Assembly: GCF_008831285.2 (NCBI RefSeq)
Contig: NC_045138.2
Span: 15,285,934 to 15,349,933 of the forward strand
Length of the DNA: 64,000 nt
DNA from: Nymphaea colorata
Taxonomy: Eukaryota; Streptophyta; Magnoliopsida; Nymphaeales; Nymphaeaceae
Reading direction: 5' to 3'
The position numbers and the translations under genes are program-made. Positions within the stretch are counted from its first letter, which is position 1. Every line of letters begins with the position of its first letter. Positions 5,638 through 28,478 of the stretch are shown here, piece by piece. The notes under the pieces were generated by a model. The model did no database searches. It worked only from the letters and a program-made list of their open reading frames with translations, and was not told where the DNA came from.

Positions 5638-8452
5638 GAGGAAAGAGAATTTGACATAAAAAACTTACTGAAGCAATCATTTTAGCAAAAAGTTCACCTG
5701 AAATTTTTTTTTTCAAGACCATCAAACGGCGCCTGTAAGACCCATTGATTAAGCTATTTTAAAAAAACGATATTAAAGGCAGCCACGCAACACTGATGCA
5801 ATGCAAATCGGCTGACTCGGACCGATTGTGACATCAACGCTTTTCCTTCGACACAAATAGGGGGGAAAACTTTGTCACTCGACTTCTTGTCAATGGCTCC
5901 ATGGTATAGACAAATCCAGGAAATTATTCCAATTTTTTTTCCAGAGATAATAGACTTCTTTTGACTCTCTTGACATTTTTTTTTTCTTTTTGAAAGACAT
6001 GTTTTCAGTTGCTGACCAAACTTTATTTCCAATTTACTGGTGTCGGGCTTAAAATTTTTGGAAACTATAAGAAGGACGACTTTTCTTACCACTATCCTAT
6101 AGTTTAGTTGAAGTCTGTGGTCATTTCTAGCAATCAAACTCTCGAAATATTGGGCTTGAAATTGAATCAATTTGAAAAGAAAATCTACGCGTGACTAACA
6201 ATCAAATTCAAATGGATATAAGTTTTTTAATTGAATGCCACAGATAGACAATGAATATGCAGGACAGTCATGAATCATGATGGCACACGTAGAAGGCCTC
6301 CATATGTGCAACGAGAATTCCTGCAACTGCTTCAATGGTGTTTGATAAGAAATTCGTGTTTTAGGAACATACATAAATGATTAAAACAGATATTTAAGAA
6401 ACTTTATATGCTTCTTTCAGGAAACATGATTCAATCACGTAGCGTTGAATGAATCCACATCTGGGTTTGTGTGGGCAATTGCCCCCACAATCCCACAAAA
6501 TTCAGTCATTTCAATATTGGTTACCTCCAACCATTTGCTTGCGCTGCAACGCATACGAAAACGATAGAAAGTGAAGGTTATGAATGAGGACAAGTTATAA
6601 AGGTAAACCACTGAAGCGAGATTGCCACAAAAGAAGGAAACAAACCACCGACGAAATGGGGAAAGGTATTGCCTTCTTTTTTATGGAATACTTTATCACT
6701 TTGATGGTCGATTCCGTCTGCAGCTTTGTTCAACTTTTTCATGTTCCAATTGCAGAACAGTGTGGCTCGCTTATTAAAACAAAATACATCAAATTAAATA
6801 GAATCGGACTCCAGCAACGGTTCAGCCCAAACATTCAAAAACGGCAAATGTTCATTCTCCAAAGGGCTAGCTAGTTAATTTGTATGAGATAGTTGGAGTT
6901 GTGAAACTAGTTTATTTTGTAATCAAGATGAAAAAGATCTGTTATGTTTATTAAGTGGTAATAAATACAAAAGTCGTTGCATGCTGCTACCAAATTCAAA
7001 ATATCAACTGACTTTTAGGGTGTATTAGAATGCATACAAGTGCTGAGAGTAGCACTATCAGCGTTTCGGATTCAAATCATATGTACTTTGAATCTATCTG
7101 TTTTTTTTTCTTTGGGGGATATTCATACACTTGGATTCAAACTTTGATTTGATCTCGAATGAAAAAAACGTATCCAAATCCGAATCGAAATCTCATCTCA
7201 CAATCTGAACCTTTCCAGAATCCAATTTTTACATTAATATCCGACTCTGCATCTGAATTTTGAACTAAATCCGACTGATTTTCAAAACTTAAGAGTATTG
7301 AATAAATAATATTTATTTAAAACTGAATCTGAAATTTGATCAGATGTTTATGTACATCCTAATCCAATCTGATGTCTAAATCCCAATCCAATCTGACTTG
7401 TTAATTGGGTATTAATTTTTTTCATGTCCAATTTTGTCGGAACAGTTCTGTTGGATTATTCAATTCAAATTGGATATGTTAACTTACCCTAGCAGAGAGA
7501 GAAGGGGACTAGGGGGGGCAATGGCACCCCCCTCAAGTTTTGAAATTAAATAAATTTTTTTTAAAAAAAACAAAATCTCAGTTCGACCCATGTAAAACCA
7601 TTGAAATATAAAGCATTTCCCATGTTAAAAATTTCCCAAATTTTATTTAATGGTTGTACAATTATTCAGCCCTGTTAAAGATAAAATCCTGTTTGGAAGT
7701 CCCTGCGTCCTTATGTACACCCCCCCTATCAAACACAATTGCAAAAGTCCCGGATGATTTTAACATGTTTGGTATACGTTTTTCCAGTTGAATTTCAAGG
7801 ATGCGACTAGCAATCGATTACTTTTGCTTCCTGATTTTCACACCCGATACAAGCGTTTGGGACGATCAAATATGTTCTTAGATGTTTGGTAAACTCACTT
7901 GGTGCTTGGTGGGGAGGAGTACATTATACGATCTAACACGTTTATACCAATTCTAAGATTTTCCTTTTTTTAAATCTAGCGAGTCAAGATATGTAAGAGC
8001 AAAGAAGACTTAAAAGAGTCTTTAAAAAACGATATACATGTTGACTAGACCAAATTACAGCGCCAATTCCCTAGCACCATTTGAACTTCCTTAGATGTTC
8101 AATCCATGCATGCTTGTGGTCAGATCTATGACAACTAATAGATTTGGTAGAAAAAAAGGTTAACAGGACCGTAGATCCAAATCGGGCCCTCTTCAGCTCT
8201 AATCTGGCTGCAGAATGAGGCTGGATCCGAGTATTCGAATAGAAACGATTAAAAATCGATTTGATTCACCGGCCCGTTCAAAATGAAGCCGGACCCGACC
8301 CGACGACCGAGTAACTGAGCATTTTCCATGGCATGACAGAAACTGCAGAGAACTATCCCAAATCGACGGCATGAAAATTTTCCAACGTCCACAGGTTGGA
8401 AGCTTCCGTTCTCTCCTGCCGATTCCCCGTTTCTCCCCCACATCTCCAACTA

Positions 8453-8460
8453 CTATATAT
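8453..8460 (+). promoter_or_regulatory. TATA box of gene A, shared with the NHL paralogues
   Basis: 'ctatatat' sits 117 bases before the ATG at 8570. The same string with nearly the same surroundings lies 118 bases before the ATG of the NHL gene at 20245 and 99 bases before the ATG at 25494. The TATA box and the CT-rich leader behind it are therefore an inherited NHL promoter. Confidence 0.8.
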
Positions 8461-8569
8461 TGAGCTTCTCGATCTTCCCTGCTCTTCATCTTTCTCCTTC
8501 TTGTTCTCTCTGTTTTTCCTGAGCCTCAACAGCTCTTCCAGTTTTACACAAATTGGCTTCCTCGCCCAC

Positions 8570-9064
8570 ATGGCTAACAACAACAAGAAGCCGGCGGGCA
8601 GGCTCAATAAGCCGGCGCTCAACCCCAACAAGCAGGCAGATAAGCTGGCTCTCAACCTCTACAAACAGAGAGATAAAATGGCACTCGACCTCTACAATCA
8701 GGCAAATAACCTGGCGCTCAACCTCTACAAACTGGCAGATAAAATGGCATTCAACCTCTACAAACAGGCAGATAACCTCAACAAGCCGGTATTCGATTAC
8801 CTCAACAAGCAAAACAACCTGGCAGCTAACTTCAACAAGCCGGGGGCCAACAGGATGAAAGCCGTCAACCGGGTGGCCAACGTCGACAAGCCAGCAGCGA
8901 ACCTCAACCAGCAGGCGGCCCGCCCGGTTGGCCGGGGCCATCCAATTGGCCGCCGGCTTGTTGACGTTGGCCACCCGGTTGGCCGCCCGCTTGTTGTGGT
9001 CGGGGGGCCGGCTGGCCGGGCATTCAATCGGGTTGCCAAACTCAAGAAGAAAAACCAAATGTGA
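8570..9064 (+). CDS. Chimeric repeat protein in an NHL gene frame (gene A), 164 aa
   Basis: I do not recognise this protein. It starts MANNNKKPAG, at the position of the NHL start codon (the paralogue at 20245 starts MAESKPAN). Residues 15-69 are five consecutive 11-residue units of the type [LM]-A-[LF]-[ND]-L-Y-[KN]-Q-A-[DN]-K. Residues about 70-115 are Asn/Lys/Pro/Ala-rich with repeated NKP. The C-terminal third is Gly/Arg/Val/Pro-rich and ends KLKKKNQM. There is no membrane segment, signal peptide or LEA_2 domain. The leader, TATA box, 3' UTR and AATAAA (9195-9200) match the NHL genes C and D. The last NHL codons (TKCDV) survive at 9053-9067 in another frame, and the ORF's TGA lies inside them. 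An in-frame ATG at 8396 lies upstream of the TATA box and is unlikely to be used. Whether the gene is expressed is unknown; it could be a pseudogene with a fortuitously open frame. Confidence 0.6.
   Translation: MANNNKKPAGRLNKPALNPNKQADKLALNLYKQRDKMALDLYNQANNLALNLYKLADKMAFNLYKQADNLNKPVFDYLNKQNNLAANFNKPGANRMKAVNRVANVDKPAANLNQQAARPVGRGHPIGRRLVDVGHPVGRPLVVVGGPAGRAFNRVAKLKKKNQM
8612..8776 (+). repeat. Five tandem 33-bp units coding 11-residue repeats
   Basis: Five in-frame 33-bp units starting at 8612, 8645, 8678, 8711 and 8744. Units 2-5 are clearly alike at DNA level, with a core of the type 'ctcaacctctacaaacag'. Unit 1 is more diverged. The 11-residue period fits an amphipathic helix with 11/3 periodicity, as known in group-3 LEA proteins, but the residues here are Leu/Tyr/Asn-rich rather than the usual Ala/Lys/Glu/Thr. 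Confidence 0.85.
8864..8983. repeat. Inverted repeat inside the gene A reading frame
   Basis: Bases 8864-8894 and 8953-8983 are reverse complements at about 28 of 31 positions ('ccgggtggccaacgtc' left, 'gacgttggccacccgg' right). This GC-rich palindrome explains why the minus strand is also open across most of gene A, and why the C-terminal part (GHPVGR-type) differs in composition from the NKP-rich part. Confidence 0.8.
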
Positions 9065-9657
9065 TGTGAACCACTATTAAGTTTTGAGCTTTTCTTTTTT
9101 TTCAGTCTTTGTTGTGTCCATAAGATCATCTTACTATGTTTATTAAAGATGTGTTTGGTGATCGAGATTCTTTTGTTTTTTCTTTTTCTCATATAATAAA
9201 GCTCATTTTCTCTGAGGGGGACACATGTATTTATATTTTTCTTTGTATTGTTATTTTTATTGTAGCTGAGCTTTTGGTTGGAAGTTAGGTTATTCAGCCG
9301 TTGAGCTCATGCAGTTGTTGTAAAGCGTGCAAACTCTCATAGAACTTAAAGTGCCACAAGAGGTGAAGGGGTATGTCACTTCATGGGATTGGTGGTGTTT
9401 GTTCAGGTCGCACTTTATGAGGCCTGCATTGCACCTAGGGCTGCATAACGAACTCGTCTATATAAGTTTGACTCAAACTCAACTTGTTTATAAACGAGCC
9501 GAGTTTGAGCTCTAACTTAAGCTCGCTCAATGTTGATTGGAGGAACTCAACTCAAGCATGGCCTTTAATCAACGACTCCAGTATGCAAATGAGCTGGTTA
9601 AAACTTAAAAGTCCAGCAAAACTCATCCTCTCACCTCAAAATATTTGTGGGGTTCAA

Positions 9658-10191: not shown

Positions 10192-13100
10192 ATGCAAGTT
10201 GAGACATCTAAAGTGCAAGCTCATTGGATTTCTATAGAGGTGAAGCACCAAAGTTTTGGGAGATTTTTCTTTGTTCTAGGGGTGTATCTCCATTCGGATT
10301 TTCACATCCGTAGGTTTCAGTATGATGAGCTTAATGAGGAGCTTTCTAGCCTATGTAAGCCCAATGTATGCTTTGGCCAACCAGTTTGTGAAAATTTGTG
10401 ACCCTGACACCAAGTTCTCTTGGTCTAACAAGAGAGAGGGGCCTGCTAATGTGCAAAGTTTAATTGATCACTGCCTTGTCTCTCATGACTAGTGGGACTG
10501 CCGGGAGTGGATTTTCAGTCTTCGAATTCTTCCTCTTACTTCTTCTGATCATAGTCCTATTGTTATGGAGGTTGAGAGAAACCATATCTTCACCTATGGC
10601 AAATCGATCTTCCATTATTTCAATTACTGGGAACAATTTCTCCAGTGCACCAAACTCATTGCAGACTATTGGTCTCATCATGTTGTTGGCTGCCCCATGG
10701 TTAGGCTTGTTTCTAAACTTCAACTTACTAGAGATAAGCTTCGGGAGTGGTCTAAGCAAGGCCCTAATGATCTGAACAGAATTATTGAGAGACTCGGAGT
10801 GTAGGTAGGAGTGGCTCAGAACCTTATGGAGCGGGGTGATTTGTTGGTTTCCTCTCGTGAGATTAAGCTCCACCACAGTCTCCTTAAGCTTATCAAGATG
10901 GATGAGGAGCGGTTAAGGCCAAAGGCTCATGTGAGGTGGATGAGGGAGGGCGATTCTAACTCAAATTTTTTTCATGCCATTGCTAAAGGCAGACAACAGA
11001 GAAACCATATCCGCACTATCAAGGATGGAGAGAGGGTTCTCTCTGACATGGATGAAATTTTTGCATCTTGCACTACTTACTTCAAAGACCTATTGACTGA
11101 CAATGCGGGTTCGGGGCTCCTTCCTTTCAATGTCTGTCCAGATCTAAGGGTGACAGAAGAAGAAAATGAGCTTTTGGTGAGTCCTATTCGCGATGAAGAA
11201 ATACAATGGACAATATTAAGGGCGAATAAGGATTCAGCTGTTGGACCAGATAGATTCAACAATCACTTTGATCAAGCATACTGGTTCATCATTGGGCCCG
11301 ATGTGAGCCTCGCAATTAAGGAGTTTTTCCGGTCTGAACGCATGGTAAAAGGGACCAACAAAACACATGTTGTTTTTCTTCCCAAAGAAGAGGGTGCATG
11401 CACTATGAACAAGTTTTGGCCTACCTCTCTTTGCAATAGCATTTTACGCATGAAACCCATTTTGAGTAGCATTCTTCACCGGAATCAGGCAGTATTTTTT
11501 ATGGGACGCAGCATCCAGGACAGCTTTTTACTCAGTCAAGAGGTGATTCAATCACTTGCTCACAAGAAGTCTAAAGCTTCGTGCATTAAAATCAACCTTA
11601 GCAAAGCTTATGATGGAGTGAATTGGCGGTTCCTAGAGAGTAGCCTTAAGCTGCAAGGCTTTTGCTCCAACTGGACTAGGCGATTTATGGTTGTTGTTTC
11701 TACTGTCTCCTCTGCACTGCTCATTAACGATAAGGAAGGATCATGGTCCTTCACCTCAAAGGGGTTGCGGCAAGGAGATCCCTTATCCCCCTACTTGTTC
11801 ATCATTATGATGGAAATACTTAATCGCAGCATGTTGGCTTATATGCAATTGGGTAAGATCCGTTGCCTAAAGGTTAGCGCTCTAAGCTCTATTCATTCCT
11901 CCTTCTATGTTGATGATGTCTTTGTTTTCATTGAAGGTAGGAAAAAATTCCTTTTAAGCCTTAGAGATTGTTTCTTTGAGTTTGAGGCTTGTTCGAAGCT
12001 CAAAGTTAATCCCAACAAGACCTCTATTTTTTTCTTTAATATTTCTGACGTCGAGTGTAGTAGACTATGTGCTATCACGGGCTGGAAAAGAGGTATCTTT
12101 CCAGTTATGCATTTGGCTCTGCCTCTCCAAGGACATGCCATCACGGAGAGCCAATGTGAGCACATAGTGATTAAAGTTAATCAGAAGTTGACTGGCTGGA
12201 AGCAGAAGCTGCTTTTTTATGTTGGAAAACTCTGCTTGGTTAAGCATGCTTTGACATCTATCCTAGCTATTGGATGATGCTCTTGTGGATTCCTCCATCA
12301 ACGTGCCACCAAATCGAAAAATTGTGTTCGGGTTTCATTTGGAGGGATGATCTGGAGGCCAAAGGGGCACACCTTATCAGCTGGAATACTCTTTGCAGAC
12401 CGAAGGTGGAGGGTGGAGTAGGGCTTCGACGCATGGTAGACATCAATCGGGCTAATTTCTGTTTTCTCGGGGTCAAAGCTATCACGCAGGACTCACTCTG
12501 GGCTGATCTTGTCAGGGCCAAGTATCTAACCAAAAAGAGTCTGTGGTAGTACACAAACTTAGTGGGAGTGAATCTAGCTCAAGGAAAAGGGTGATCTAAT
12601 GTTGGCAGTTAATTGAATCTCAAGTTCATTGGAGAGTCAACAATGGCCCAAGAGTCTAATTTTGGCGTGACCGGTGGAATGTTGTCATCATCTCCAATAT
12701 GATCTCACCTACTATTTTTCCGCTAATTCAAGATACCATGAATTGCACTTTTAAGGAGTTGTTTGCCGAGCAGGATACCTATGTCCATATGTTCCTTGAT
12801 TCTATGAGCATTTCCGTGCACCTCCCGATGCTTGATGATAGTCGATAGGATGTACTTGAATGGGTAGACTGCGGTTCCCGGCCACTGTCAAGACATCATC
12901 TTTGGGACATGCTGCGTGATAGTAATCCCACTCAGCAGTGGATGAATGCCATTTGGAATGTTGGAGCCCCTCTCCATGCTGCATGGACGACCTACCTGGC
13001 AGTTGAAGGTCGTCTCCATGTTGATGCTAGAACTTAGAAGCATGGACTCTACCTTGCCTCCAGATGTTATATTTGCAAAATGGCTTAAGAAGATATCAAC

Positions 13101-17708: not shown

Positions 17709-18212
17709 TAAAGAAACTTTAAATGTGATATAAATGTTGACCGGACCAGATTATCGCGCCAATTCCCTATTAATGCACGAACTTCCTTAGACCGATAAAT
17801 GGCCCAAACAAATAAAATAGTTACTGTTCAAACTAGGTTTGCATCAGATATATGACAACTAAATGGGTCGGCCCCAGGTCAGATGTAGATTTGGCAGAAA
17901 AAAGGTTGGCAGGACCCAAGATCCAAATCGGACCCGCTTCAGGTCTAATCTGCCAGATGGTGGCTGGATCTGACTATTCGAATAGAATAGGTAGAAAAAT
18001 CAATTTGATTCAGTTTCCAGCACTCGACCGGACCAAACTCAAACCAGAAACAGACCTGAACCCAACCGAAGGACAGGGTCCAATATTTAAATCCAAATCC
18101 GTCAGCAGTATATTTAGTTTTTTTTTTTTTTTTTCCTTATAGATACCCATCATGAAAGATAGTTATATTTAACTATATGTGGAATTTTCGTGAACCCTTT
18201 TCCCGCTATTTG

Positions 18213-18545
18213 TATCAGGGGCATAAGAACACCACCATACTGCAGCCTGCTTTCATGGGGGAAGCTTTGTTGGTTCCTGGGAACTCCGTTGCTGGCTTCC
18301 TCGATGCTCAGAAAGCCAGTGTGTTTTACAATGTAGATGTGAAGATGAAACCCAAGATTGGGCATTTGAAGACAACCAAGTATAGTCCAAACGTCTGGTG
18401 CTTCTACTTGCAGGTTCCGTTGAACTCCATGAGCTCATCATCTTCTGCCACTGGTGGGTTCACATGGATCAAATGTGATGTGAACAGATCTTTGTTGTGT
18501 CCACATGATCTGCGTTCTACTTGCACAGATCTTACTGTGTTTTGA
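18213..18545 (+). pseudogene. NHL10/YLS9-like pseudogene (copy B), C-terminal half fused to its promoter region
   Basis: From TAT-CAG-GGG at 18213 the frame reads YQGHKNTTILQPAF and continues through KTTKYSPNVWC to IKCDV, the C-terminal half of an NHL protein closely related to the gene at 20245. The cytosolic N-terminus, membrane segment and NPN motif are missing. The bases just before (18130-18212) match the far-upstream flank of the gene at 20245 (about 19745-19825). One deletion of roughly 840 bp therefore removed the proximal promoter and the first half of the gene. The frame is open from an ATG at 18177 in former promoter DNA (122 codons), but nothing supports its use. It also lacks two residues in the MRFKIG stretch and has a changed C-terminal tail after KCDV. 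It is probably non-functional. Confidence 0.85.
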
Positions 18546-18689: not shown

Positions 18690-20244
18690 TGAAAAGTTTC
18701 ATTATGTATGAATTGGAAAATACCCATCTCATGGACTAATCTATGCTGATGAAATTGCATTTTTCTAGCATATTTTTTGGAAGTCCATGTGTCTATGTGC
18801 ATCCCCGTTTCAAACACAATTGCAAAAGTCGCGGATGGTTGTACATTTGTGGTCTACGTTTTTTCAGTTGAATCTAAAGGATCTGACTAGCAATCGATGA
18901 CTTCTGCTTCCGCAATACGTTATGTGACGTAACCAGTGGGTGCCACATGTGCCAGTCTCACAAAATTTATTTATTTTTATCTTAATAATTTATATACTTT
19001 ATTGTTTATATATATAACTGCTCTTAAAATCATTAAATTAATGCCTCCATCAACCAAAATTTCTATAACAGTTATATATGTATATATATAGAACCATCCG
19101 CGACTTTTGCTGAACACTTAGTATATAAATAATTAATTGGAATTATGGCCGAACCAAATCTAGCGAGTCAAGTTATGTAAGACAAAAGAAGCCGTAGAGT
19201 CTTTAAAGAGCGATTTAAATGTTGGCCTGACCAAATTATAGCGCCAAGTACCTAATGCCGGAAGTATGCATATGGGTCAGATCTAAGATAATTAAATGGG
19301 TCGTGGCCCCATGTCAGACTGAAATTTGGTAGAAAAAAAGGTTAACAGGACCCCAGATCCAAATCGGACCCGCTTACAGCTCTAATCTGGCTGAATGAGG
19401 CTGAATCCGACTATTCAAATAGAATCGGTAGAAAATCGATTTGATTCACCAATCCATTCATGGATGCCACATATAGTAACGTTTTGTTATTCAAAAATAT
19501 TTTAAAGGCTTCTATTTTTATTCATTTAAATATATCTTGTCCTTGTCTTTGAGAAAAGATTGATATAATAATAATTTTTTTCTGATTCAAAATTTCAATT
19601 ACTTAATCGGCCTATTCAATAGATATTTGATTCAGTTTCCGACCTTTACAACACTCGAGTGGACCCAACTCAAACCTGAACCCAAATGAAGAGACAGGGT
19701 CCAATATTTAGAGCCAAAGCCATCAGCTGATTCTTATTATAATTAGTTTTTTTTTTTTTTTCTTATAGAAACACCTCATATTTTACTATATATGGAATTT
19801 CTTTGAACCTTTTTTCCTGATATTTCCTCCAATTTTCATGGGCTCCCCAAATCGGATCCTAGATCATTAGCAGCCCGAACTTTCCTAGAAACTGGTCTCC
19901 CCAACTCGGACCCGACCCGTCGACGGACCATTCCCTTCCCTTTGGACTAACATCCTTTTCAGTTTTGGAAGCTTCCATGACATAACAGAAAGAAAACTGC
20001 ACAAACTTCCAATCGCCGCCACGACGAAAATTTTCCAATGTCCACACATTGGAATCTTCCGTTCTCTCCTATCGGTTCCCGCGTTTCCCCCCTACATACA
20101 CAACGCGTCGCGCGTGTTTCCAACTGCTATATATTGAGCTTCTCAATCTTCCCTTCTCTTCATCTTTCTCCTCTCGATCTATCTCCTTCTTCCTGGGCCT
20201 CAACAACGCTTCAAGTTTCAGACCAATTAACTTCCTTTGCTCTC
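18690..20244 (+). repeat. Tandem duplication block, copy 3 (upstream flank of NHL gene C)
   Basis: Bases 18690-18770 match 5215-5290 ('ctaatctatgctgatgaaat'). From 18778 the sequence jumps to the equivalent of 7690 onward, so about 2.4 kb present in copy 1 is missing here. Bases 19310-19450 match 8130-8270, and 20030-20244 match 8390-8569 and 25380-25493. The block serves as the long upstream region of the intact gene C. Confidence 0.78.
20127..20134 (+). promoter_or_regulatory. TATA box of NHL gene C
   Basis: 'ctatatat' lies 118 bases before the ATG at 20245 and is followed by a CT-rich leader. It is identical in type and spacing to the boxes before gene A (8453) and gene D (25395). Confidence 0.8.
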
Positions 20245-20955
20245 ATGGCCGAGTCCAAGCCGGCCAATCCCAATGGAGCCTACTATGGTGGTGCTCAAGG
20301 GATCCCAACCCCTCCCCAGAACCCCCCACAGGCCTACTACAGCCACGGCCGCGGCCACCGCTCCTGCGGCTGCTGCTGCATCATAGGCACCTTACTCAAG
20401 CTCATCGTCTCCATTGTTGTCATTCTTGGCATCGCCGCTCTCATCATCTGGCTCGTGCTCCGGCCATCGGCAGTCAAGTTCTACGTAGAAGATGTATCGC
20501 TGACGCAATTCAACCTGGCGAACACGAGCACTCTGCACTACGATCTCAAACTGAATGTTAGCATCAGGAACCCCAACAGGAAGATCGGGATCGACTACGA
20601 CAAGCTCGAGGTGGCGGCGTACTACGCCGATGAGCGTTTCGGATGGGTTCAGCTGCCTGGTTTCTATCAGGGGCATAAGAACACCTCCATACTGCAGACT
20701 GCCTTCAAGGGGCAATCTTTGATGGTTCCTGGTGACTCCATTGCTAATATCTTCAATGAACAGAAAGCAAGCGGATCTTACTATGTAGACGTGAAGATTA
20801 AGCCCAAGATGAGGTTCAAGATTGGGCAATTGAAGACAACCAAGTATAGCCCAAATGTTTGGTGCTACCTGGAGGTTCCGTTGAACTCCGTGAACTCATC
20901 ATCACCTGCCACTGGTGGGTTCACAAGGACCAAATGTGATGTGGACTACTTTTAG
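20245..20955 (+). CDS. NDR1/HIN1-like protein, NHL10/YLS9-type (gene C), intact single exon
   Basis: A 236-residue protein. Residues 1-38 are Pro/Tyr-rich and cytosolic (PPQNPPQAYY). A cysteine cluster CGCCC at 41-45, possibly acylated, precedes the membrane segment at about 46-72. The LEA_2 domain follows, with SLTQFNL, NPN (109-111), YQGHKNTS and the C-terminal TKCDVDYF. YLS9/NHL10 proteins are plasma-membrane proteins induced by senescence, salicylic acid and pathogens. The ATG at 20245 is chosen over an upstream in-frame ATG at 20038, which lies before the TATA box. It shares promoter, leader and 3' UTR with genes A and D; AATAAA is at 21111-21116. It converges with the minus-strand NHL gene at 22799-23548 and is nearly the same length as gene D, with which it was tandemly duplicated. 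Confidence 0.95.
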   Translation: MAESKPANPNGAYYGGAQGIPTPPQNPPQAYYSHGRGHRSCGCCCIIGTLLKLIVSIVVILGIAALIIWLVLRPSAVKFYVEDVSLTQFNLANTSTLHYDLKLNVSIRNPNRKIGIDYDKLEVAAYYADERFGWVQLPGFYQGHKNTSILQTAFKGQSLMVPGDSIANIFNEQKASGSYYVDVKIKPKMRFKIGQLKTTKYSPNVWCYLEVPLNSVNSSSPATGGFTRTKCDVDYF

Positions 20956-22798
20956 GTTTTTGGGTTTTTTTTTTTTTCTTTTCATTCTTTTTTATGTCCA
21001 CATTTGTTCTTGTTATGTGCTTTTGGACAGATCTTGCTGTGTTCATTAGATGCGTTTAGTGATTAAGATTCTTCTCTTTTTTTGGTCTTTTTGTGTGTAT
21101 ATCAGTATGTAATAAAACTCATTTTCTTTACAGAGGATACATATATTTATGTTTTGCTTGGAAGTTAAGGCATTCTGCAGTTGACCATTGATTTTTCCCA
21201 TTTATTCGGCTGGTGTGTTTACATGAGGAGCTGTATGACTAAGTGAAAGCACTTTTCTTAGTTGTTAAGGTAGTCATTGTCCACCAAAACCTGTGTGTGT
21301 GCACGCATATATGTGCTCATAGTCGGTCAGATTCGTTCGACATAGCAATACCAATTTTTTTTTCTTATTGCTTAAGAATAGCAAAGACTAAGTTAAAGAT
21401 GTCTGTTTCTGTTTCAAAATTTAAATTTGATTAGACACTACTACTGAACTTAAATCTAAAATCAAACTAGTTATAATGTTTAAAAGTTGATCTACAGCGT
21501 ATTTTCTTAATTGGAAATAGAGATTTCAGAAAGAATGAACATTATATGAAAAAGATAAACAAATCAGATAGCAGAAGGCCCAACCGCCGAAGGACATTAG
21601 ACAGAGATAGAGACTGCGGACTTGATTAGTCCTTCTCTGAATTAATAAAAGCCCAGTTCGACCCTGTGACTAATTTAATCGTGTCATGTTGACCAAGCTT
21701 AAATCCTACCACTCTGTAACCTGAGCTTCTTCATGTCGGCTCACCAGAAATTTTACTTGATACAGACGAGATCTAGTAAGTGGTCTAATCCTCAAAGGGC
21801 TCTTGTTATGCTCATAATCAGGCAATGGCCAAACTTGAGTTAGAGCCAACCTGATTCACGAAAACTATGTTAAATTTATACTGTTCATCATGTAATAAAT
21901 AATTCTTGCAGAATACTAGATATGTACGACCAATATAATTTGGTGGCCCCGTGTCAGAGGACCCACATGCATATAAAATAGGAGGAATATTCGCATGCCA
22001 ACCACATACGTGCATGTTGAAAAACTTGACAAGTTCAGTAAAAGCACTAAGATTCCCAAGTTCCACTTGAAGGATACAAATCACCAATGATGACATTGTG
22101 GCAGAATGAGACAAGAAAAATATCAAGCATATAACATTGTCAGGAAGGTAAATTTTATACCTGAACAACGACATCAAAGCTACATGCAAGATATGCGCCT
22201 TAAATGGTTATCCATGAAGAAAATTGTTGGTCTAATAGTTCCACATAAAACTGGTGTACTCAATACTGTGCTTGAGTTATACTGTGAAGACATGCCTGGC
22301 TTTGAGAACCATGTGGTGCATTCTGCTATAAGGGAATAATGTTAAGAGCTGATACATCCAGAAAATTGAGTCCAAGATGAGAGTTTACATTTGAGTTTCC
22401 ACCGAGTTACATGGAACTTTGCCCTCAGGAACCAGAGATACATGTATATCTGATCCTCTGAAGTAAATAATAAACTAGCCAAGGTAAAATTTTATATTGG
22501 AACATGAGATTGATTGCTCGAATGCGTCTCATATTTGCTTTCCTGAACTTCTCTGAGTTAGCTTCAACAGCGAAAGGGAAAAAGAGGAAAAAAGTTAATT
22601 TTCTGCCGATATGCATGATTCATCTGAGATTCTGAACTCGGCACAAGCAGTTGAAGTTTTCGAGTTACAGAAAATTTCTTGCCTTCAATCTCAATGATCT
22701 CTATATGTGATGTAATAATAAATCAAGGCCGAAAATCTCACGATAGTTTGAACTTAGATGAAATGAGTAATTTATATTATTCTTTCCATACAAAATAG
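20956..22798. other. Intergenic DNA between convergent NHL genes
   Basis: Holds the 3' UTR of gene C and downstream DNA that recurs at 26205-27749. For example, 'gaccaagcttaaatcctaccact' or a close variant occurs at about 21690 and 26980, and 'ttcttcatg' follows both. This shows that the whole interval was duplicated with the genes. No additional gene was recognised. Confidence 0.7.
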
Positions 22799-23548
22799 TC
22801 ATACATTAACAATCACACTGGAGTCCATGAAGGGATTAAAAGGAAATAACCAATTTAGGAATTCCACTTTACATTCCGTTCTTGTAAATTCACCAATTCT
22901 TGAGGCGCCAGAGTTATTTGAAGGCACCAGGGGAACCATCAATTCACACCAAATCTTCTGAGAGAACTTGTGTGTCATCATCGCCCCAATTTTAAGCATC
23001 ATCTTCGCATGAATCTCAACATCGATACTGTAAATACCATCTGCTCTATGCTCCATGAAGTCAACCACACTCGATTCACTAAAGACAATCACAGACTGAC
23101 CACCAAAAGCAGGGTGAATCATGACCGCCTCTTTGCGCCTCAGATAGAAGCCAGGCAGTAAAACCCAGCCAATCAATTTTTCATGATAATAAGCAGACGT
23201 GTCGAGCTTCTGGTAGTAGACGCCGAAGTTGTCGTGCGGATTCGTTATATTAACATCCAAATTGAGATGGTATCGCAGGGTGTGTTTGCTGGTTAAGTTG
23301 AACTCTGTTAAATACGCATTCTCTACGTAGTAAGTCACAGGACGAGACCGCAGAACATACAGGGTGAGGAAAACAGCTGCGCCAACGATGGCCAGAATGA
23401 TGGTTGTGCAGTACATGAGCACAACAAAAGTCCGGCAATGGCCGGCGGATCGGCCGGCCTTGTGTCCGGAATACTGTGGCAGGAGTGGGATATCATGGTG
23501 AGCAGCTGGGTGGGTTCTGTTAAAATGGTTTGGCTCCGAATGAGCCAT
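22799..23548 (-). CDS. NDR1/HIN1-like protein, second subtype (gene E), intact single exon
   Basis: A 249-residue NHL protein. The N-terminus is His/Pro-rich and cytosolic, a membrane segment lies at about residues 42-66 (TTIILAIVGAAVF), and the LEA_2 domain follows. Landmarks are YLTEFNL, ITNPHDNFG (NPN changed to NPH), VYYQKLD, PGFYL and FTRTECKVEF. The C-terminal tail after the ECKVEF block is longer than in genes C and D. It is a sister of the minus-strand gene at 27750-28478. A TATA-like box on the minus strand (tatataatc, about 23631-23639) lies some 85 bases before the start. It converges with gene C. The role in defence or senescence is inferred from the family only. Confidence 0.92.
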   Translation of the reverse strand: MAHSEPNHFNRTHPAAHHDIPLLPQYSGHKAGRSAGHCRTFVVLMYCTTIILAIVGAAVFLTLYVLRSRPVTYYVENAYLTEFNLTSKHTLRYHLNLDVNITNPHDNFGVYYQKLDTSAYYHEKLIGWVLLPGFYLRRKEAVMIHPAFGGQSVIVFSESSVVDFMEHRADGIYSIDVEIHAKMMLKIGAMMTHKFSQKIWCELMVPLVPSNNSGASRIGEFTRTECKVEFLNWLFPFNPFMDSSVIVNV

Positions 23549-25493: not shown

Positions 25494-26204
25494 ATGGCCG
25501 ACTCCAAGCCAACCCACTTCAACGGAGCCTACTACGCCGGTCCACAAGGAGCCCCAACTGTCCCCCAACAGCCGCCACAGGCCTACTACCGCCCCGGCCG
25601 CGGCCACAGCTCCTGCGGTTTCTGCTGCATCATAGGCACCTTCCTCAAGATCATCATCACCATCGTTGTCATCATCGGCATCGCCGCTCTCGTTATCTGG
25701 CTCGTTCTCCGGCCGACGGCGATCAAATTCTACGTAGAAAACGCGTCCCTGACACAGTTCAACTTGACAAACACGAACACTCTGCACTATGATCTCAAAT
25801 TGAATGTTAGCATAACGAACCACAACAGGAAGATCGGGATCGACTACGACAATCTCGAGGCGGCGGCGTATTACGCCGGAGAGCGGTTCGGGTGGGATCA
25901 GCTGCCTGGCTTCTATCAGGGTCATAAGAACACCACCATACTGCAGACTGCCTTCAAGGGGCAGTCTTTGATTGTCCCTGCGGATTTCGTTGCCAATGTC
26001 TTCAATGATCAGAAAGCACGCGGGTTTTACTACGTAGATGTGAAGATTAAACCCAACATGAGGTTCAAGATTGGGCATTTGAAGACAACCAAGTATAGTC
26101 CAAAGATCTGGTGCTACTTTCAGGTTCCTTTGGACTCTAAGAACTCATCATCATCTGCCGCTGGTGGGTTCACTAGGACCAAATGTGATGTGGATTACTG
26201 GTAG
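25494..26204 (+). CDS. NDR1/HIN1-like protein, NHL10/YLS9-type (gene D), intact single exon
   Basis: A 236-residue protein, the same length as gene C and very similar to it. It has a Pro/Tyr-rich N-terminus (PQQPPQAYYRPGR), a cysteine cluster CGFCC at 41-45, a membrane segment at about 46-72, and an LEA_2 domain with SLTQFNL, YQGHKNTT and TKCDVDYW at the end. The usual NPN turn is NHN here (residues 109-111). The start is fixed by the shared leader and the TATA box at 25395; AATAAA lies at 26352-26357. It converges with gene F (27750-28478) and repeats the gene C / gene E arrangement, so both genes of the module were copied together. It probably encodes a functional plasma-membrane NHL protein. 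Confidence 0.95.
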   Translation: MADSKPTHFNGAYYAGPQGAPTVPQQPPQAYYRPGRGHSSCGFCCIIGTFLKIIITIVVIIGIAALVIWLVLRPTAIKFYVENASLTQFNLTNTNTLHYDLKLNVSITNHNRKIGIDYDNLEAAAYYAGERFGWDQLPGFYQGHKNTTILQTAFKGQSLIVPADFVANVFNDQKARGFYYVDVKIKPNMRFKIGHLKTTKYSPKIWCYFQVPLDSKNSSSSAAGGFTRTKCDVDYW

Positions 26205-27749: not shown

Positions 27750-28478
27750 CTAAAGTCCTTGAAGGGATTTAAAAGGAAAGAACCAATCCAGGTATTCCAC
27801 TTTACATTCGGTTCTTGTAAATTCACCATTTCTGAAGGCAGAGTTGCTCGATGGCATCAGGGGAACCATCAATTCACACCAAATTTTTTGACAGAACTTG
27901 TCTGTCATCAATGCCCCAAATTTAAGCCTCATCTTGGCATGAATCTCAATATCTATACTGTAAAAACCATCTGATCTCTGCTTCATGGAATCACTGACCC
28001 TCAAGCCATTGAGCCCGATTACAGACTGCCCACCGAAAACAGGGTGAATCGAGACCGTCCTGTTGCGTCCCAGATAGAAGGTAGGCAGGAAAACCCAGCC
28101 AATCAATTCTTCATCATAATATGCAGATGCGTCGAGCTTCTGGTAGTAGACGCCAAACATCATGTTCGGATTCGTTATACTTACATCCAGTTTGAGATTA
28201 CATTGCAGAGTGCCCTTGCTGGTTAAGTTGAACTCTGACAAATATGCATCCTCTACGAAGTAAGTCACGGCACGAGGCCGAAGAACGTACAGGGCGAGGA
28301 ATGCAGCTGCACCAAGGATGACAAAAATGACGACCACGCACATAAACATGGCGCAGATCCGGCAATGGCAACTGGGTCGGCTGGTCTTCTGATCGGAGTA
28401 CTGTGGCAGGACTGGGGGCACATCATGGGGAGCAGCAGGGTAGGTTCTGTTGAAATGGATTGGCTCGGAATCAGCCAT
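27750..28478 (-). CDS. NDR1/HIN1-like protein, second subtype (gene F), intact single exon
   Basis: A 242-residue protein closely related to gene E (22799-23548). The N-terminus is cytosolic with HFNRTYPAAPHD, then comes a membrane segment at about residues 42-67 (FVILGAAAFLALYVL) and an LEA_2 domain with YLSEFNL, ITNPNMMFG (NPN kept here), VYYQKLD and FTRTECKVEYLDW. The start codon is in the same place as in gene E. The TATA-like block of gene E is degenerate here (aatatagtc on the minus strand near 28580), so expression may differ. It belongs to the convergent pair with gene D. Confidence 0.92.
   Translation of the reverse strand: MADSEPIHFNRTYPAAPHDVPPVLPQYSDQKTSRPSCHCRICAMFMCVVVIFVILGAAAFLALYVLRPRAVTYFVEDAYLSEFNLTSKGTLQCNLKLDVSITNPNMMFGVYYQKLDASAYYDEELIGWVFLPTFYLGRNRTVSIHPVFGGQSVIGLNGLRVSDSMKQRSDGFYSIDIEIHAKMRLKFGALMTDKFCQKIWCELMVPLMPSSNSAFRNGEFTRTECKVEYLDWFFPFKSLQGL

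What the first reader, a model, noticed from the sequence alone, without database searches (positions are those of the whole stretch)
8390..9200. An NHL gene whose coding body was replaced by a new repeat protein
Gene A keeps the NHL promoter, TATA box at the same distance, CT-rich leader, start codon, 3' UTR and AATAAA of its paralogues C and D. Between them is an unrelated 164-codon frame of 11-residue repeats and NKP-rich and GR-rich segments. The end of the old gene is still there: ACC-AAA-TGT-GAT-GTG (TKCDV) is readable at 9053-9067, but the new frame crosses it and stops on the TGA created within it. This looks like birth of a new coding sequence inside an old gene's regulatory shell, by local repeat expansion or insertion. 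The sequence comparisons are direct; that it makes a protein is inference.
Basis: partly seen in the sequence, partly recalled or inferred. Interest (0 to 1): 0.78.

Follow-up and report, generated by a model that had tools for sequence, protein, structure and literature searches.

The report
NHL gene shell with new repeat frame
A plant stress-gene copy has kept its control regions and both ends but has had its coding middle replaced by an array of short repeats that still reads as one open frame; it may be a new gene in the making or an ordinary dead copy, and no expression data were available to decide.

Summary
Locus A (8324-9243) is a tandem relative of intact NHL/LEA_2 gene C: same promoter, leader, ATGGC, last eight codons, stop and 3' UTR. 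Between 8575 and 9053 the NHL body is gone; a 21/33-bp repeat array fills the gap. A paralogue on contig C2 has the same shell around an intact NHL body, so A is the derived copy. No other copy of the array was found in the 408-Mb genome, at the sensitivity of the search.

New here: the 'GR-rich' part is largely the same array inverted (25-29-pair RNA stem); the self-matches found keep one triplet phase (9 of 9 direct, 5 of 5 inverted); codon usage in the ORF frame is LEA_2-like.

Against a selected protein: unit-to-unit pN/pS 0.89, an equally open antisense frame, no homologues in the collections searched (plant proteomes were not available).

Best reading: the body was replaced by repeats inside a duplicated gene's regulatory shell, as described for flounder antifreeze protein from Gig2. 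That it makes a useful protein is not shown. Transcripts, ribosome footprints and orthologous loci would decide.

The parts
8324..8569 (+). Retained NHL promoter and CT-rich leader
   Evidence: Aligned to C 19973-20249, score 238 vs at most 34 in 100 shuffles; to the C2 paralogue L021, 93 vs at most 30 in 200. The genome DNA search with 8100-8575 listed only local cluster sites, but it missed L021, so it is not exhaustive
8454..8461 (+). TATATATT box, 116 nt before ATG (C 117, D 98)
8570..8574 (+). ATGGC, the last 5' bases in the alignment with C
8570..9064 (+). 164-codon open frame made of the repeat array
8578..8605 (+). 21-nt type units
   Evidence: the repeat finder family D1, spacings 21, 21, 21
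8606..8770 (+). Five 33-nt units (11 residues, consensus DKLALNLYKQA)
   Evidence: consensus
8771..8919 (+). Degenerate direct units; spacings 54, 51, 21, 24, 72, all multiples of three
8920..9026 (-). Inverted part of the array, read in + as the GR-rich segment. Inverted matches cover about 8920-9000; the right border is not resolved
   Evidence: inverted repeats I1-I3, I10; own-orientation reading; TRF repeat 8947-9018
8864..8892 (+). 5' arm of RNA foldback (29 pairs in two of the three stretches folded, 25 pairs from 8868 in the third)
8955..8983 (+). 3' arm of RNA foldback
9026..9052 (+). Return of a direct-orientation unit (NRVAKLKK) in the same frame as NRVANVDK upstream
   Evidence: by eye on the translation; not tested
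9054..9080 (+). Remnant of the old NHL 3' coding end and stop, TKCDVNHY*
9081..9243 (+). Retained NHL 3' UTR with AATAAA at 9195
   Evidence: genome search finds C only, missing D and L021
20245..20955 (+). Gene C, intact NHL/LEA_2 paralogue, closest to A on the 5' side
   Evidence: LEA_2 6.4e-11; dN/dS 0.27 against D
25494..26204 (+). Gene D, intact NHL/LEA_2 paralogue
   Evidence: LEA_2 1.5e-9
18209..18494 (+). B, 3' fragment of another NHL copy
   Evidence: aligns to C 20661-20962 only

Best explanation
Locus A is a tandem duplicate of an NHL/LEA_2 gene like C. It lost about 680 bp of coding sequence (C 20250-20928) but kept promoter, leader, start codon, last eight codons, stop, 3' UTR and poly(A) signal. 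The gap holds about 479 bp of 21/33-bp repeats, most likely amplified in place, with an inversion or inverted duplication of roughly 80-107 bp inside. Units and length changes are multiples of three, so one frame runs from the old ATG into the old tail. If the retained promoter still works, the locus makes a roughly 0.7-kb RNA that could encode a basic (pI 10.8), Asn/Ala/Lys/Leu-rich orphan protein without the NHL membrane anchor. Shown: shared shell, polarity, replacement, inverted segment, and no second copy found. Inferred: in-place origin, transcription, translation. Not shown: selection on, or function of, the protein. I call it a proto-gene, not an established gene. This claim about structure is compatible with both the dead-copy and the working-gene rivals, so the confidences do not add to one.
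For: Shell alignments. The C2 paralogue L021 has the same shell with an intact NHL body. The body DNA search gives only itself and its own inverted parts. The protein search gives itself, its antisense, and two hits with E 3.57 and 6.68 that look copia-like by eye. Array and inversion. Triplet phase in 9 of 9 direct and 5 of 5 inverted self-matches above the score threshold, while three A-C flank alignments carry 49 gaps per 141 substitutions, a third of them multiples of three. ORF-frame codon usage of the five 33-nt units is reached by 104 of 20000 column permutations, and by 30 of the 6650 stop-free ones; by 4 of 2581 with LEA_2-only training. The inverted piece scores -0.053 in the ORF and 0.176 in its own orientation; 3 of 2000 base shuffles reach that in any of six frames.
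Against: pN/pS between units is 0.89 in the ORF frame (0.56-1.35 in the other five frames), so residues look unconstrained. Antisense frame 0 has no stop either. A third of permuted five-unit arrays are stop-free. Training on three non-LEA_2 genes gives no signal (1536 of 2639; synonymous part 2057 of 2559), though gene C scores negative there too. No seed in the old NHL body is convincing. The genome DNA search missed known diverged shells, so a diverged source of the array could also be missed. A against D upstream shows only 1 gap per 21 substitutions, so the flank indel rate is uneven. No noncoding array was run as a control for phase. No expression data.
Confidence: 0.62

Rival explanations
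1. Dead NHL copy: a pseudogene whose lost body was filled by a GC-rich minisatellite. The open frame is a by-product of unit length and composition and nothing is selected.
For: pN/pS 0.89; antisense frame 0 also open; P(stop-free) 0.333 for permuted units; internal inversion; neighbour B is a decayed copy. In simulation the frame survives with probability 0.43-0.71 if the array is young (1% change).
Against: If the array has changed by 7% the frame survives in 0.039 of simulated runs at the flank indel ratio, 0.065 and 0.137 at ratios of 0.2 and 0.1 (today's ORF used as ancestor). One phase in the self-matches found. LEA_2-like codon usage.
Confidence: 0.45
2. Functional new gene: an orphan repeat protein expressed from the NHL promoter and kept by selection, a plant parallel of flounder antifreeze protein born in a Gig2 shell.
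For: Same anatomy as in PMC9122973 (passages). Phase and codon usage.
Against: pN/pS near 1; the inversion turned roughly 27-35 codons into antisense; helix amphipathicity is not above a repeat-preserving control (2974 of 20000); no expression evidence.
Confidence: 0.2
3. Hairpin RNA gene: the inverted units form a young MIR-like or siRNA-yielding foldback driven by the NHL promoter.
For: Fold z -6.25, none of 200 shuffles as stable; stem of 25-29 pairs; 10 of 12 Rfam matches at E up to 5 are miRNA precursor models.
Against: All 12 are far below gathering scores. One stem 21-mer was searched with up to 3 mismatches: its own two arms plus two sites at 3 mismatches, against 3 for the control pattern.
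Confidence: 0.06
4. The array was inserted from another gene or an outside source rather than amplified in place.
For: No convincing seed in NHL coding sequence (codon shuffles reach the match in 216 of 3000 for C). G+C is 0.73 in 8920-9026 and 0.49-0.57 in the rest of the body, against 0.30 in the 3' UTR.
Against: No source found in the own genome, none confirmed in prokaryote or viral contigs, only chance-level PDB matches. Codon usage is LEA_2-like.
Confidence: 0.2

Closest known systems
Flounder type I antifreeze protein genes born from Gig2 (PMC9122973; 12 passages seen, including part of the abstract)
   Same: A redundant copy of a duplicated gene; [quoted passage not shown] new body with 11-residue repeats
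   Different: Fish, Ala-rich helix with known function and expression; there a 35-bp seed was proposed, here no seed is significant; here an NHL/LEA_2 parent, an inverted segment inside the array, and no functional evidence
Antifreeze glycoprotein genes from trypsinogen (recalled; the 9-bp seed is mentioned in a PMC9122973 passage; PMC8622921 on codfish AFGP seen in a listing only)
   Same: Ends of an old gene kept, middle made by repeat amplification
   Different: Nine-base seed there; 21/33-bp units and no known product here
NHL/LEA_2 genes (Pfam PF03168)
   Same: Promoter, leader, start codon, coding tail and 3' UTR
   Different: No LEA_2 domain and no membrane anchor in the new frame
Young MIRNA foldbacks from inverted duplications (search listing only)
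   Same: Long stem from inverted copies
   Different: No target site found and no small RNA evidence

Membership tests
NHL/LEA_2 proteins (PF03168) | LEA_2 domain | tested here: not met
   LEA_2 not among the matches of the ORF with E-value limit 10; C 6.4e-11, D 1.5e-9
NHL/LEA_2 proteins (PF03168) | N-terminal membrane anchor | tested here: not met
   Highest 19-residue hydropathy 0.89 against 3.18 in C
Old-shell, new-body gene (Gig2-to-AFP type) | Flanks and UTRs homologous to an intact parent up to the start codon and from the old stop on | tested here: met
Old-shell, new-body gene (Gig2-to-AFP type) | Coding body unrelated to the parent and made of short repeats | tested here: met
Old-shell, new-body gene (Gig2-to-AFP type) | Short seed in the parent that was amplified | tested here: inconclusive
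   KPANPN match 205 of 5000, 216 of 3000; the NPN site scores as well
Old-shell, new-body gene (Gig2-to-AFP type) | Expressed protein with a selected function | not testable with these tools
   No RNA-seq, proteomics or plant relatives held; pN/pS 0.89 gives no support
MIRNA gene | Stable foldback | tested here: met
   z -6.25; 25-29 contiguous pairs
MIRNA gene | Curated precursor family match | tested here: not met
   Highest score 28.3 bits against gathering 82
MIRNA gene | Target or source locus with a near-complementary site | tested here: inconclusive
   One stem 21-mer tried; two sites at 3 mismatches, control 3
MIRNA gene | Discrete 21-22 nt small RNAs | not testable with these tools
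   no small RNA data

The most novel reading that the evidence does not exclude
A plant counterpart of the fish antifreeze genes: a working orphan protein of 7- and 11-residue repeats born inside a duplicated LEA_2/NHL gene's regulatory shell from amplified scraps of the old LEA_2 coding sequence, caught early enough that the old stop and tail are still legible and an internal inversion has already turned part of it into a new GR-rich segment.
Probability: 0.18. Interest if true: 0.8.

Novelty: new variant of a known kind. Interest (0 to 1): 0.52.

Why it matters
Cases where a gene's regulatory shell and ends survive around a wholly new coding body are few, and those I know of (recall, and PMC9122973) are fish antifreeze genes. 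Here intact paralogues and a decayed sister copy lie in the same cluster, so the steps (duplication, loss of body, repeat amplification, inversion) can be read and dated, and whether such a frame is used can be put to simple RNA and ribosome data. Even if the frame is dead, it shows how easily a promoter-equipped open frame can arise from repeats.

Tried and rejected
Residual NHL coding sequence in the body: 24 DNA comparisons (6 coding sequences by 4 stretches). Nominally low ones were the gene at 1080 against the first half (0 of 200 in both shuffles), the same gene against the inverted second half (0 and 23 of 200), D against the inverted second half (1 and 1 of 200), and the minus-strand gene at 22799 against the first half (2 and 1 of 200). 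In a family-wise test of the whole body against five of these genes (fragment B left out) the best score was reached in 15 of 400, so I set them aside. Protein comparisons with the same six: 86 to 265 of 300 shuffles reach the observed score. Seed from the NHL N-terminus: anchored test 598 of 2000 for C, more for D and the two minus-strand genes; local test 205 of 5000; 36-nt test 216 (C), 313 (L021) and 1016 (D) of 3000. The NPN site at codons 108-109 scores as well. Left as unproven.

Hendecad helix: the moment at 98 degrees beats free shuffles (0 of 2000), but a repeat-preserving control gives 2974 of 20000; rejected as evidence. BUD31 and C4bp and colicin E9 are chance-level. Codon tests: the base-shuffle control ignores the repeats, so one search replaces it for the five 33-nt units; the control for the inverted piece again ignores repeats. 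Synonymous-only signal is weak (87 of 2641), absent with three genes (2057 of 2559). Training used 24 of the 30 loci (dropped: C, D, the two minus-strand window genes, B, and L032 with a stop) plus three window genes. The inverted-arm pair has 4 of 6 differences at third codon positions, too few to use. The species was not identified: size and chromosome-scale contigs would fit Nymphaea colorata (409 Mb, 804 scaffolds, 14 pseudo-chromosomes; passages of PMC7015852), but this is a guess from recall and the 783 contigs were not reconciled. Paper searches for a plant parallel: one search held none; others (10 of 211 listed; 10 listed) showed none I recognised; listings only.
Full report
Observation. 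Locus A was compared with its paralogues by local alignment and 100 shuffles each. A 8324-8574 aligns to C 19973-20249 (score 238, shuffles at most 34) and 8447-8545 to D (86, at most 30). Downstream, 9054-9243 aligns to C (130, at most 40) and 9054-9302 to D (137, at most 43); against fragment B nothing exceeds chance (37, at most 37). Similarity stops right after ATGGC and resumes at ACCAAATGTGATGTG (9054). In the old frame the remnant 9054-9080 reads TKCDVNHY*, where C ends TKCDVDYF*. The 164-codon ORF 8570-9064 is as described.

Polarity of the shell. In the window's genome (G000, 407.8 Mb, 783 contigs) a DNA search with 8100-8575 lists A and four sites, all in the local cluster; a search with 9040-9340 lists A and C. 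These searches are not exhaustive: they missed the shell of L021 and, on the 3' side, of D, both of which align directly. A protein search with C lists 46 matches at E up to 0.001. The nearest outside the window is on contig C2 (L021, 78% identity). L021 has an intact NHL body and the same shell as A: 93 (at most 30 in 200 shuffles) on the 5' side and 103 (at most 37) on the 3' side. The shell is therefore older than A's body, and A is the changed copy. Noncoding divergence between A and C is 14-19%. C and D differ with dN/dS 0.27, as expected for conserved proteins.

What fills the gap. The body is a direct repeat array of 21- and 33-nt units. From about 8920 to 9000 it matches the same array inverted; the right border (9000 to 9026) is not resolved. 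Arms 8861-8901 and 8946-8986 are 85% complementary, with 26 of 27 positions in the core. Read in its own orientation the segment gives HNKRAANRVANVNKPAANWMAPANRA. It may be an inversion or an inverted duplication. A direct-orientation unit returns afterwards in the same frame (by eye). As RNA, 8800-9020 folds at -125 kcal/mol, z -6.25, none of 200 shuffles as stable. The longest uninterrupted stem is 25 pairs in that fold, and 29 pairs (8864-8892 with 8955-8983) in the two other stretches folded.

Uniqueness. The body DNA finds only itself and its own inverted parts in the genome. The protein finds itself, its antisense, and two hits with E 3.57 and 6.68 that look like copia elements by eye. 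None of 113 pattern matches in prokaryote genomes or 26 in viral contigs was confirmed by tblastn. PDB sequences and Pfam give only chance-level matches. Plant proteomes could not be searched, and a diverged source in the genome could have been missed.

Is it coding? For: all 9 direct self-matches above the score threshold have spacings that are multiples of three, and all 5 inverted ones share one phase; no noncoding array was run as a control. Three A-C flank alignments carry 49 gaps per 141 substitutions, a third of them multiples of three. Other noncoding pairs vary, from 1 gap per 21 substitutions (A-D upstream) to 11 per 30 (A-B upstream); the C-D coding comparison has 2 per 102. Simulated neutral decay of today's ORF by 7% keeps the frame open in 0.039 of runs at an indel ratio of 0.35, and 0.065 and 0.137 at 0.2 and 0.1. 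At 1% it survives in 0.43-0.71. The force of this depends on the age of the array. Codon log-odds in the ORF frame (0.228) are like those of C (0.195) and D (0.214). With repeats preserved, 104 of 20000 column permutations of the five 33-nt units reach the observed value, and 30 of the 6650 stop-free ones; with LEA_2-only training 4 of 2581. The inverted piece (8920-9026) scores -0.053 in the ORF and 0.176 in its own orientation. In base shuffles 3 of 2000 reach that in any of six frames, and 1 of 2000 for 8920-9000; these shuffles ignore the repeats. It looks as if coding-like sequence had been flipped. These codon tests were devised after seeing the data. The training set is 24 LEA_2 and 3 other sequences; with the three others alone the signal vanishes (1536 of 2639), but gene C is negative there too.

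Against: pN/pS between the five 33-nt units is 0.89 in the ORF frame and 0.56-1.35 in the other five frames. Antisense frame 0 has no stop either, and + frame 1 has one. One third of permuted five-unit arrays are stop-free in a given frame. The inverted segment turned roughly 27-35 codons into antisense. The protein would be basic (pI 10.8) and without a membrane anchor; amphipathic helicity is not above a repeat-preserving control.

How it likely arose (inference). Tandem duplication of a C-like gene; loss of about 680 bp of coding sequence between ATGGC and the TKCDV codons; filling by local amplification of a short, LEA_2-like coding scrap; inversion or inverted duplication of part of the array, possibly through its own repeats. 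A seed in the old N-terminus (KPANPN) is suggestive but not established. The same cluster shows another decay path: B has kept only a 3' part of the gene.

Comparison. The anatomy matches that reported for flounder antifreeze genes derived from Gig2 (PMC9122973, passages): similarity up to the start codon, none significant in the coding part, similarity from the old stop through the poly(A) signal, 11-residue repeats, and an open choice between an amplified seed and replacement by GC-rich repeats. What is missing here is expression, function and an orthologue series. I therefore hold body replacement as shown, translation as open, and function as unlikely but possible.

Noticed in passing
18209-18494 (with 17710-18012 upstream): B is a truncated NHL copy that aligns to C only from 20661 on, although more distal upstream sequence is shared with A and C.
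   Followed up: partly
10826-12549: Reverse transcriptase domain (PF00078, 9e-26) in the ORF 10826-12277, LINE-like by recall; the next ORF 12274-12549 has no Pfam match. It lies between A and B.
   Followed up: partly
G000 C2:7941950-7944444 (L021, L025): A second pair of NHL-type genes close together on another contig, perhaps a whole-genome-duplication counterpart of the cluster here; synteny was not tested.
   Followed up: partly
22799-23548 and 27750-28478, minus strand: Two divergent NHL-like genes interleaved with C and D on the other strand; LEA_2 scores 20.3 and 24.6 bits lie below the cut-off of 25.4.
   Followed up: no
8864-8983: RNA foldback of 25-29 pairs inside the ORF; it could stall ribosomes or feed small RNA pathways.
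   Followed up: partly
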